A stretch of DNA of 64,000 nt, taken from contig CALVZS010000002.1 of NCBI GenBank assembly GCA_944372575.1, positions 62,001-126,000 of the forward strand, written 5' to 3'. This document shows, piece by piece, positions 60,910 to 64,000 of this stretch. Origin of the DNA: an uncultured Clostridia bacterium (GTDB lineage: Bacteria; Bacillota; Clostridia; Christensenellales; Borkfalkiaceae). The position numbers and the translations under genes are program-made. How positions within the stretch are numbered: the stretch's first letter is position 1; each line of letters opens with the position of its first letter. The notes beneath the pieces were generated by a model that was not told the DNA's origin, made no database searches, and saw only the letters and a list, made by a program, of their open reading frames with translations.

Positions 60910-60933
60910 GTGCGCAGGATATGATCGGATGGA

Positions 60934-60966
60934 ACAGGAGCCGGGGCGACCCGGCTCCTGTCTCTT
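60934..60966 (+). terminator. Terminator after ileS
   Basis: The 12-bp stem ACAGGAGCCGGG/CCCGGCTCCTGT (60934-60945 with 60950-60961, allowing loop closure) is followed by CTCTTT. Confidence 0.85.
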
Positions 60967-60978
60967 TGCGGCGGGGCG

Positions 60979-61007
60979 TTGCATTGTGCCGCCGGTTGTG
61001 CTATAAT
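60979..61007 (+). promoter_or_regulatory. Promoter of the XRE-TM-InlB gene
   Basis: TTGCAT (60979-60984), 17-bp spacer, TATAAT (61002-61007). Leader about 45 nt with CCGGAGCG. Confidence 0.85.
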
Positions 61008-61057
61008 ACGGCTGTACAGATAGATGGATGCGGCGTTGCATCCGGAGCGTGATACGA

Positions 61058-64000
61058 ATGAAATTTGCAGAACGGTTAAAAGAACTCCGCAGGGAGAGGC
61101 ATCTGACGCAGGAGGCGCTTGCGGAGCGCCTCAACGTCCATGTGCAGACGGTGTCCAAGTGGGAGCGCGGCGTCTCCGAGCCGGACATCTCCCAGCTGGG
61201 GGAGCTGGCGCAATCGCTCAATGTTCCCGTCGAGCGTCTGGTCGGCGCGCCGGAGACGGAACTGTTTACGGGGTCATTCGATGCTGCCGCTTTCGGGAAG
61301 AACCTCTCTTCTCTGCGCAAAAAACGCGGGGAGCTGCAGGAGGATGTGGCGAATGCCGTGGGAACGACGGCGGACATCGTCTCCAAGTGGGAGCGCGGGA
61401 TCATCTGCCCGGATGTTGAACGGCTGCTCCTTCTGTCCGGACATTTCGGAGTGTCCTTTTCCAGGCTGTACTTCGGGATCGGCGAGGAGGAGCGCACGGA
61501 GACGCCCGCCGCATCGCGGCGCAGAAAGCGCTTTTCGCTTGCATGGCTGGGCGGGACAGCCGTCCTCGGCGCGGCGGCGATCGTCTGCACCGTTTTGCTC
61601 GTGCAGCAGCGCACGCCGGCCGCGGGGGACATAACGGAGCCGGAAGAGATCAGCTATACGGTGACGGTCGGTTCCGCGCAGTACGAGGTGAGCGAGCGTG
61701 ACTGGTTCACGCCAGCCCCTGCCGAACGGGAGGGCTATGACTTTGTCGGCTATGCCGGCGAGGACGGGGAGATTGTGGAGTTCCCCGTCAGGATCGAAGA
61801 GGATACGGCATTTACGGCGGTCTTTCTCCCGCATGAATATACCATCGACTATTGGCTGAACGGCGGATACTTTCTGAGTACGCCGCAGAGTTCGTTCACC
61901 GTGGAGAGCGGCGCGCTCACGCTCCCCGTCCCCGCCAGACAGGGAGCGTCCTTCGAGGGCTGGTACCTTGCGGCGGACTATGCGGGGGAGGCGGTCGGCA
62001 GCCTCTCCTGCAGCGGCGCGGACGTCAGCGTCTATGCGCGCTGGAGCGACGAGGTCTACACGGTGCGCTACGAGATGGACGGCGGCATTCTCTACGGGAA
62101 CAATCCCTCGGAAGTGACGCAAAATGAGGAGGTCGTCCTCGCCGAACCGGTGCGGGAGGGGTATCATTTTCTCGGCTGGTACACCTCGCCGACGGGCGGG
62201 GAGTGCCGGGAGAGCGTGGGAGGGGAGGGGGCAAGCAACCTCACCCTCTATGCACTCTGGCAGGAGTGCGGGGATCTGTACACGGTGCGTTATGAGATGG
62301 GCGGCGGCACGCTGACGGCGGAAAACCCGCTCTCGGTCGGGGCGGGGGAGGTGCATCCCCTCCATGGGGCGGTGCGCACGGGGTACGACTTTGTCGGCTG
62401 GAACACCGATGCGGACGGCTCCGGAACATACTATGAAGTGCTGATGGGCATCCGCGCTGACTTCACCCTGTATGCCGTCTGGACGCCGAAGATCTATACG
62501 GTGCGCTATGAGCTGGACGGCGGCTCCTTCTACGAGGGGGGCAACCCCAATCTCATCCGCTACGGGGAGGAGGTGCAGCTTGCGCCCGCCGCCAAGTACG
62601 GGCATACCTTCCTCGGCTGGTACACCTCGCCGACGGGCGGCGAGCACGTGGAGCGCATCGGCACGGACAATGTCCTGCGCCTTTCAACGCTGTATGCGCG
62701 CTTTTCAGCCAACAGCTATACCGTGCGCCTTCTGGGCGCGGGCGGCACGTTCAGCCTGGACGGTGAGACGGTGAGCGAGGGCGCGCTCACGCTCAGATTC
62801 GGCGACGAGGCGGCGCTGCCCGACTGCCTGCGCGCAGGCTATGATTTTTTGGGCTGGTTCGATAAAGACGGGAGGGAGTATTCCGTCATCGACGTCACCA
62901 ACCTCGGCGATCTCACGCTGACGGCAAAATACCGCCAGTCCGGGCTGACCTATCCCGTGGAATATGTGCTGAACGGCGGCATCCTCTCGGAGGGAAATCC
63001 CGCGAACGTGGGATACGGACAGGTGATCCCTCTCCATGCTCCCGAGCGCTACGGCTACCTCTTTCTCGGCTGGAACACCCGTCCGGACGGCTCGGGCGTC
63101 TATTATACCGCTACGCCCGCGGGGCAGGAGACGGCGCTCACGCTGTATGCCGTCTGGCAGGAGATCGTTGTGAGCGGCAGCGCCGAGAACTTTACCTACC
63201 AGAAAGGGCAGACCTCTGTCACGATCACGGGCTATACGGGGCCGTTCGGCGAGAAAGTCGACCTCGTCATTCCCTCCTATATCGACGGCCTCCCCGTCGT
63301 TGCGATCGAGGGGCGGATGAACCCTTCCCAAAAGGATCCTGGAAAGCCTCTCAGAAGCCTTACGCTTCCCGATACGCTTGTCCGGCTGGGGGAGGGGAAT
63401 TTCTCTTTCATAATAATCCGGGAGTCTGTCACCATTCCCGCAGGCGTCAGAGAGATCGGGCGCGATTGTTTTCGTGTTTCGGAGTTTTCGCTCGCGTTTG
63501 AGGAGGGCAGCGCGCTCACGCAGATCGATGAATACGCATTTCGGAGCGCCAATATCCGGAACGTTCTCGTGCTTCCCGAAGGCATCCGCGTACTCTGTAC
63601 GGGGGCGTTTGAGTCTGCGGTCATCCCCGGGATGGTTCTGCCCGATACGCTGGAGATCATCTGCACGATGTCTCTGCAGTTTACTGCGGGCAGCGATGTT
63701 TCGCGTCTGCTCATTCCCGCCTCGGTGAGGGTGGTGGAGGAGATGGCGTACGGAAGCGGTTTGGAGATCATTGACGGTGCATCGCGCCCGGCATACAGCG
63801 TCATGCTCGATTTCGGCAACGGGGAAAAACAGTTCCTTGCGGGACAGGCGATCGCGCTGCCAAAGGCGCAGCGGGAGGGGTATCGCTTTTTCGGCTGGTA
63901 TGATGCGCGTAAGGACGAGTATGCCGCATCGCTCTATCTTACCTACTACGAGGGCGCCGTACTGCAGGCGGTCTTTACGGAGATATCCTCCCATGACGGC
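61058..64000 (+). CDS. Tandem-XRE, transmembrane, InlB B-repeat and BspA-LRR protein (3' end beyond window)
   Basis: The frame is open to the last base, giving 981 residues without a stop. Order: HTH 1 (about 1-62) and HTH 2 (about 79-141), both Cro/CI type, each with SKWERG; a basic stretch and one transmembrane helix (159-182). Outside, seven InlB B-type (Listeria-Bacteroides) repeats follow (about 200-705), with signatures like YTVRYEMDGG, GYHFLGWYTSPTGG, LTLYALW. Next come BspA-type leucine-rich repeats (about 706-905: VIPSYIDGLPV, LTLPDTLVRLG) and then an eighth B-repeat. The cytoplasmic DNA-binding end and surface end are joined in one chain. It could sense a surface ligand and control transcription; this is inference. 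CCGGAG precedes the ATG. Confidence 0.9.
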   Translation, partial: MKFAERLKELRRERHLTQEALAERLNVHVQTVSKWERGVSEPDISQLGELAQSLNVPVERLVGAPETELFTGSFDAAAFGKNLSSLRKKRGELQEDVANAVGTTADIVSKWERGIICPDVERLLLLSGHFGVSFSRLYFGIGEEERTETPAASRRRKRFSLAWLGGTAVLGAAAIVCTVLLVQQRTPAAGDITEPEEISYTVTVGSAQYEVSERDWFTPAPAEREGYDFVGYAGEDGEIVEFPVRIEEDTAFTAVFLPHEYTIDYWLNGGYFLSTPQSSFTVESGALTLPVPARQGASFEGWYLAADYAGEAVGSLSCSGADVSVYARWSDEVYTVRYEMDGGILYGNNPSEVTQNEEVVLAEPVREGYHFLGWYTSPTGGECRESVGGEGASNLTLYALWQECGDLYTVRYEMGGGTLTAENPLSVGAGEVHPLHGAVRTGYDFVGWNTDADGSGTYYEVLMGIRADFTLYAVWTPKIYTVRYELDGGSFYEGGNPNLIRYGEEVQLAPAAKYGHTFLGWYTSPTGGEHVERIGTDNVLRLSTLYARFSANSYTVRLLGAGGTFSLDGETVSEGALTLRFGDEAALPDCLRAGYDFLGWFDKDGREYSVIDVTNLGDLTLTAKYRQSGLTYPVEYVLNGGILSEGNPANVGYGQVIPLHAPERYGYLFLGWNTRPDGSGVYYTATPAGQETALTLYAVWQEIVVSGSAENFTYQKGQTSVTITGYTGPFGEKVDLVIPSYIDGLPVVAIEGRMNPSQKDPGKPLRSLTLPDTLVRLGEGNFSFIIIRESVTIPAGVREIGRDCFRVSEFSLAFEEGSALTQIDEYAFRSANIRNVLVLPEGIRVLCTGAFESAVIPGMVLPDTLEIICTMSLQFTAGSDVSRLLIPASVRVVEEMAYGSGLEIIDGASRPAYSVMLDFGNGEKQFLAGQAIALPKAQREGYRFFGWYDARKDEYAASLYLTYYEGAVLQAVFTEISSHDG

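What the first reader, a model, noticed from the sequence alone, without database searches (positions are those of the whole stretch)
61058..64000. Membrane-spanning one-component regulator: two XRE domains fused to InlB/BspA adhesin repeats
One uninterrupted frame encodes two Cro/CI helix-turn-helix domains, a basic stretch, a single transmembrane helix and then at least eight InlB B-repeats plus BspA leucine-rich repeats. DNA-binding domains sit on the N-terminal side and adhesin-like modules on the outside, which implies a single-chain link from surface contact to gene control. XRE proteins with a membrane helix exist, but this pairing with a long adhesin-like ectodomain looks unusual. The second HTH has weaker helix-turn-helix residues (QEDVANAVGTTADIVSKW), so it may be structural. 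The C-terminus (LPXTG anchor, more repeats or a stop) is outside the window.
Basis: partly seen in the sequence, partly recalled or inferred. Interest (0 to 1): 0.72.

Follow-up and report, generated by a model that had tools for sequence, protein, structure and literature searches.

The report
Membrane receptor with predicted DNA target
A gut bacterium makes a single protein with adhesin-like repeats outside the cell and two DNA-reading domains inside; comparison with dozens of relatives shows it belongs to a conserved family and predicts the DNA array it binds and the small regulator gene that it probably switches on.

Summary
One open frame (1084 aa; start 61058; stop 312 bases past the window) encodes two complete Cro/CI domains, a basic stretch, one transmembrane helix, InlB repeats, a BspA leucine-rich region, another InlB-type repeat and an unassigned beta-rich tail without LPXTG. 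About 40 relatives keep this order, so it is not an assembly join. The same head also carries other ectodomains (BspA; BspA+M23; M23).

The new part lies outside the window. In most relatives the next gene encodes a ~70-aa winged-helix protein ('S'). Its promoter has a good extended -10, no -35, and a gapless array: two direct bipartite sites 21 bp apart and one inverted site where the -35 should be. In this genome array and S lie on another contig. Array and receptor co-occur: 9 of 11 receptor genomes versus 0 of 92 others in the genus; 7 of 9 versus 0 of 387 in an order-wide sample. The array's second half-site tracks recognition-helix residues of the second HTH, though largely along one clade.

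Best reading: a transmembrane one-component activator that senses an unknown envelope or external signal and switches on S. DNA binding, direction, ligand and S's targets are inferred. New variant of transmembrane transcription regulators.

The parts
60933..60961 (+). inverted repeat acaggagccggg/cccggctcctgt, probable intrinsic terminator of the upstream ileS gene
   Evidence: sequence
60979..61007 (+). sigma-A-type promoter of the receptor gene: TTGCAT, 17-bp spacer, extended -10 TGTGCTATAAT
   Evidence: sequence; the same extended -10 recurs upstream of many relatives
61058..64000 (+). receptor gene (R); runs to window-equivalent 64312; 1084 aa. An in-frame ATG also lies at 61028
61076..61237 (+). 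HTH1 (Cro/CI, HTH_3)
   Evidence: 64.5 bits; AlphaFold2 helices 2-62
61142..61168 (+). HTH1 recognition helix, residues 29-37, just after the invariant H28 (H-x-Q-T-V-S-K-W-E-R)
61310..61465 (+). HTH2 (Cro/CI, HTH_3)
   Evidence: 39.6 bits, over cut-off; AlphaFold2 helices 76-138
61370..61393 (+). HTH2 recognition helix, residues 105-112; D106 and K110 track half-site B of the array in relatives
61514..61531 (+). basic stretch RRRKRF (residues 153-158)
61538..61603 (+). single transmembrane helix (residues ~161-182)
   Evidence: hydropathy 2.29, far above the rest of the protein; helix 150-181
61652..61831 (+). degenerate InlB-type repeat next to the membrane
   Evidence: alignment and AlphaFold2 strands
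61838..63154 (+). six InlB B-repeats (Flg_new)
   Evidence: genome positions: 61838-62038, 62057-62254, 62279-62479, 62495-62698, 62747-62929, 62951-63154
63179..63772 (+). BspA-type leucine-rich region (Pfam LRR_5 match at about 63347-63670)
   Evidence: Foldseek matches to TpLRR, PcpA and other LRR proteins
63773..63994 (+). further InlB-type repeat; a ~105-aa beta-rich tail follows, mostly outside the window

Best explanation
A transmembrane one-component transcription activator (receptor R). The InlB/BspA ectodomain senses an unknown ligand or envelope state outside the membrane. Inside, the tandem XRE head binds bipartite sites (box A TTMAGC, read by HTH1; box B TTCC/TTGCC/GCGG, read by HTH2) arranged as two direct sites 21 bp apart and one inverted site over the missing -35 of one dedicated promoter. 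There it recruits RNA polymerase (class-II activation) to express a ~70-aa winged-helix protein (S), which passes the signal on. In this genome R and the array-S unit are unlinked, so R must act in trans. Shown: architecture, conservation, S, array geometry, missing -35, co-occurrence. Inferred: that R binds the array, that it activates rather than represses, the signal, and S's targets.
For: Conserved order in about 40 relatives; same head on LRR and M23 ectodomains; S downstream in 33 loci; array aligns gaplessly over 96 columns in 26 loci; array in 9 of 11 receptor genomes versus 0 of 92 others in the genus, Fisher 2e-11, and 7 of 9 versus 0 of 387 in the order sample, 1e-13; own-genome array 61 bits on another contig; S promoters have -35 matches at background (2.28 of 6) but a fixed -10 in 29 of 29, R promoters 4.14 (p 4e-8); HTH2 residue 110 is the column most associated with box B of 984; D106 loss and TTGCC concur in two supported clades; box B does not follow S type in L172, L173, L167.
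Against: No experiment. R110/GCGG is essentially one evolutionary change, so the statistical link between HTH2 and box B is weak once ancestry is counted; L148 and L167 are exceptions. G089 has a full-length divergent receptor without array or S; two M23-type genomes (G381, G443) lack a detectable array. L137 has an array but no S was recognised. The co-occurrence tests are not corrected for shared descent.
Confidence: 0.68

Rival explanations
1. The array is bound by S itself (autoregulation), and R does something else, for example acts structurally or on other DNA targets.
For: S and R co-occur, so co-occurrence alone cannot separate them; S is a predicted winged helix and lies next to the array.
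Against: Box B class is decoupled from S type in L172, L173 and L167, whereas the palindrome before the S start follows S type. Each site is bipartite, which fits a tandem HTH better than a single one. Box B varies with HTH2 residues.
Confidence: 0.15
2. R represses S until a signal releases it, rather than activating S.
For: Site 3 lies over the -35 region, where a repressor could also block polymerase; many XRE proteins are repressors (general knowledge).
Against: The S promoter has no recognisable -35, so it should be weak without help; two sites upstream plus one at -35 is a common activator layout (general knowledge).
Confidence: 0.2
3. RodZ-like structural protein whose HTHs bind protein, not DNA, and anchor the envelope repeats.
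For: RodZ has the same N-in, single-helix, C-out layout with an HTH (general knowledge); no RodZ HTH_25 domain is detected in this genome.
Against: HTH_25 scores 12.1 bits against a cut-off of 24.6; two HTHs with conserved recognition-helix positions; only 11 of 103 genus genomes have the head, unlike a core shape gene; co-occurrence with a DNA array.
Confidence: 0.05
4. The HTH part is a vestige fused to a surface adhesin and has no regulatory role.
For: One paralogue (G021:C21) has the ectodomain without any HTH head.
Against: HTH1 is the best conserved domain of the protein (64% mean identity versus 21-62% for ectodomain parts); the head is kept while ectodomains are exchanged.
Confidence: 0.05

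Closest known systems
Transmembrane transcription regulators (TTRs; Demey et al. 2023, PMC10269533), type cases ToxR, TcpP, CadC
   Same: DNA-binding domain and transmembrane helix in one chain; single-pass; predicted inside-out topology; one-component logic.
   Different: Tandem XRE head instead of one winged helix; long InlB/BspA ectodomain; dedicated relay gene S under a three-site array; no membrane partner such as ToxS found next to it.
RodZ
   Same: Cytoplasmic HTH, one transmembrane helix, beta-rich part outside (general knowledge).
   Different: HTH_25 model not met; two HTHs; patchy distribution; associated DNA array.
XRE/Cro-CI repressors (P22 c2, C.AhdI, ImmR)
   Same: Fold of the head: P22 c2 bound to operator aligns at ~0.9 A, TM-score by target 0.89-0.91, 32% identity.
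   Different: Those are soluble proteins with one HTH per chain.
InlB B-repeat / BspA surface proteins
   Same: Ectodomain families Flg_new and LRR_5; Foldseek matches to TpLRR and PcpA.
   Different: Here they sit behind a transmembrane helix and a DNA-binding head, without LPXTG.
Winged-helix regulators: PurR N-terminus, WYL regulators CapW/BrxR, NiaR, Mga HTH (for S)
   Same: Predicted winged-helix fold, TM-score by query ~0.7-0.76 to PurR; Mga HTH matches in 13 of 28 members, best E 2e-6.
   Different: S has no effector domain and no NCBIfam or PADLOC family; no Foldseek match below E 0.03.

Membership tests
Transmembrane transcription regulators (TTR) | DNA-binding domain plus at least one transmembrane region in one chain (definition in PMC10269533) | tested here: met
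   HTH_3 twice, hydrophobic helix 161-182
Transmembrane transcription regulators (TTR) | DNA-binding domain cytoplasmic, sensor outside | tested here: inconclusive
   positive-inside charge bias in 43 sequences; no topology experiment
Transmembrane transcription regulators (TTR) | controls transcription from the membrane in response to an external signal | not testable with these tools
   candidate operator and promoter found; binding and response need the bench
ToxR/CadC family | OmpR-type winged-helix DNA-binding domain | tested here: not met
   Pfam and fold give Cro/CI domains
RodZ | HTH_25 domain (PF13413) at its cut-off | tested here: not met
   12.1 bits versus 24.6
RodZ | binds MreB | not testable with these tools
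   no interaction assay
LPXTG-anchored InlB/BspA adhesins | C-terminal LPXTG, hydrophobic segment and basic tail | tested here: not met
   full C-terminus read; relatives' C-termini likewise
LPXTG-anchored InlB/BspA adhesins | binds host or other surface ligand | not tested

The most novel reading that the evidence does not exclude
An undescribed signalling module of gut Clostridia (Ca. Gallimonas, Borkfalkia, Coproplasma, Limadaptatus, Fimimonas and relatives): a tandem-XRE transmembrane receptor with exchangeable ectodomains (InlB+BspA, BspA, BspA+M23, M23) that reads a fixed three-site bipartite operator at one dedicated -35-less promoter, driving a minimal winged-helix relay S, with HTH2 and half-site B co-evolving.
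Probability: 0.6. Interest if true: 0.78.

Novelty: new variant of a known kind. Interest (0 to 1): 0.68.

Why it matters
Targets and ligands of most transmembrane transcription regulators are unknown. Here comparative genomics supplies a candidate operator, a candidate single target gene and candidate specificity residues for a whole family in uncultured gut bacteria, so the question how a membrane-bound protein finds one promoter becomes directly testable. The head appears with several ectodomains next to the same kind of partner gene, which suggests a modular receptor platform.

Tried and rejected
Assembly or frameshift artefact: rejected, ~40 relatives keep the order. Autoregulation of R through the array: the array model finds none in the window. 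Conserved operator upstream of R: only a sigma-A promoter with extended -10 was seen. Wider regulon of R: no second strong array per receptor. Regulon of S through AAAGCGCTTTA: two sites in this genome, background level across 18 genomes. RodZ: rejected. Phage origin: viral contigs gave only XRE-head matches. PADLOC and NCBIfam: generic HTH and repeat matches, none for S. Literature searches found no description of this combination in the open-access library held; Treponema TrtA was checked and is a 104-aa XRE protein.

Full report
OBSERVATION. The frame starting at 61028 (ATG) or, more likely, 61058 (MKFAERL...) is open to the window edge and stops 312 bases beyond it on the same contig. The protein has 1084 residues. 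Pfam and AlphaFold2 agree on two complete Cro/CI domains (HTH_3 64.5 and 39.6 bits, cut-off 23; helices 2-62 and 76-138, pLDDT about 92), a basic stretch, a single long helix 150-181, then a beta-rich ectodomain of InlB B-repeats, a BspA leucine-rich region, a further InlB-type repeat and a ~105-aa tail. The tail has no LPXTG. K/R are concentrated before the helix (mean 4.5 versus 1.3 after it in 43 sequences), so the head is predicted inside.

CONSERVATION. Relatives of the head occur in 11 of 103 genomes of the genus (one is a contig-edge fragment, one a divergent full-length copy), and about 40 loci with the InlB form came from the GTDB collection, in records named Ca. Gallimonas, Borkfalkia, Coproplasma, Limadaptatus and Fimimonas and in unnamed Clostridia, several from chicken and ruminant guts. 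One genus member is Ca. Gallimonas faecavium (G061:C35 and the contig of L129 have the same length and gene), so the window is probably from a Ca. Gallimonas species. HTH1 is the best conserved domain (64% mean identity to the window protein), HTH2 54%, InlB repeats 31-62%, LRR 41%, C-terminal tail 21%. In HTH1, H28, Q30, T31, S33 and K34 do not vary; the stretch from Q30 on was one of the two patterns used to collect the loci, so of these only H28 is free of that bias. In one copy of G001 (C10) head and body lie in different frames; in G021:C21 the paralogue has the ectodomain but no HTH head.

OTHER ECTODOMAINS. The same head and helix carry BspA repeats (L172, L173), BspA plus M23 peptidase (L176) or M23 alone (L177, L178). 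The M23 copies keep HxxxD and HxH motifs by eye. This modularity fits a receptor.

PARTNER GENE. Neighbourhoods are otherwise not conserved, but a protein S of about 70 aa lies downstream in 33 loci across all ectodomain types. AlphaFold2 on the S of this genome (G000:C24, L250:5832-6047) gives a winged helix, pLDDT 94, nearest by Foldseek to PurR, ScpB, NiaR and WYL-regulator domains at TM-scores up to ~0.76 but without a significant E-value. In the genus strong S matches occur only in genomes with R (8 of 11 versus 0 of 92).

ARRAY. Upstream of S lies a block that aligns without a gap over 96 columns in 26 loci: site 1 ATTMAGC followed by box B; site 2 the same, 21 bp on; site 3 inverted, with TTMAGC to GCTSAA at 34 bp; then an extended -10 at a fixed distance (offset 62 in 29 of 29). 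Site 3 lies where the -35 should be. Across 29 S promoters the best -35 match is 2.28 of 6, equal to background (2.33), whereas R promoters reach 4.14 (p 4e-8). That is the layout of an activator-dependent promoter. Majority-base frequency falls from ~0.66-0.76 in the array to 0.36 well upstream of it.

CO-OCCURRENCE. A sequence-only model of the array was run on whole genomes. In the genus every hit above 22 bits (eleven, 41-78 bits) lies in a genome with R: 9 of 11 R genomes, 0 of 92 others, with two arrays in the genomes that have two R-type genes with S (G021, G078) (Fisher 2e-11). In 396 genomes drawn across the order it hits 7, all among the 9 with a strong head, 0 of 387 others (Fisher 1e-13). 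The model was built partly from these genomes' sister loci, and the tests do not correct for shared descent, but the order hits span several families. In the window's own genome the array (61 bits) and S are on another contig, at least ~13 kb from R by contig arithmetic; R has neither next to it. In G356 the array-S unit is inverted relative to R. The unit is therefore independent of R's 3' end, and here R would act in trans.

WHICH PROTEIN BINDS. Box B comes as TTCC, TTGCC or GCGG; I assigned classes by eye. Of 984 receptor columns, HTH2 residue 110 associates most with box B (R in 12 of 13 GCGG, K in all 21 others); residue 106 ranks 12th. By alignment to 434 repressor (general knowledge) these correspond to Gln33 and Gln29, both base contacts. 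The tree shows the limit of this: R110/GCGG is essentially one change; D106 loss with TTGCC occurred in two supported clades, one InlB-type and one LRR-type, while L148 is an unpaired loss. Five arrays not used there agree in four cases and partly in the fifth. Box B does not follow S type (L172, L173, L167), whereas a palindrome just before the S start largely does. I infer that R's head binds the array and that S may bind the palindrome.

MECHANISM. Shown: architecture, conservation, S, array, missing -35, co-occurrence. Inferred: binding by R, activation, the external signal and S's targets. The closest kind is the transmembrane transcription regulator (PMC10269533), whose anatomical definition R meets. 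The tandem XRE head, repeat ectodomain, exchangeable sensors and a dedicated relay gene make it a new variant, as far as the held literature shows.

Noticed in passing
L094:790-3693 (G021:C21): Paralogue with the same ectodomain and a transmembrane helix but no HTH head; it still has an S gene and a weaker array (41 bits) downstream. Possibly a decoy or decayed receptor.
   Followed up: partly
L136, L142, L144, L152, L168 (5' leader of S type b): Between the GACGGCGCCGTC palindrome and the S start, GTCTGC...GCAGAC could form an RNA hairpin around the ribosome-binding site, suggesting a translational layer of control.
   Followed up: no
upstream of S in most loci, just after the -10: GTTGCAAC, a perfect 8-bp palindrome near the presumed transcription start, is conserved in most loci including this genome (L250).
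   Followed up: no
L009, L010, L015, L016 (own genome): Four other single-HTH XRE proteins with one to four hydrophobic segments, so membrane XRE proteins are not rare in this genome.
   Followed up: partly
L308 (G265:C9) and L312 (G267:C6): Other tandem-XRE transmembrane proteins of the order, more distant in sequence and without the array; the one in G265 carries a coiled coil and one InlB-type repeat, so this kind of fusion may have arisen more than once.
   Followed up: partly
L137:9558-9647: A clear array downstream of a receptor where no S gene was recognised.
   Followed up: partly
G000:C3:16890-29457: A cluster of long open frames with many InlB B-repeats, the richest such region found in this genome.
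   Followed up: no
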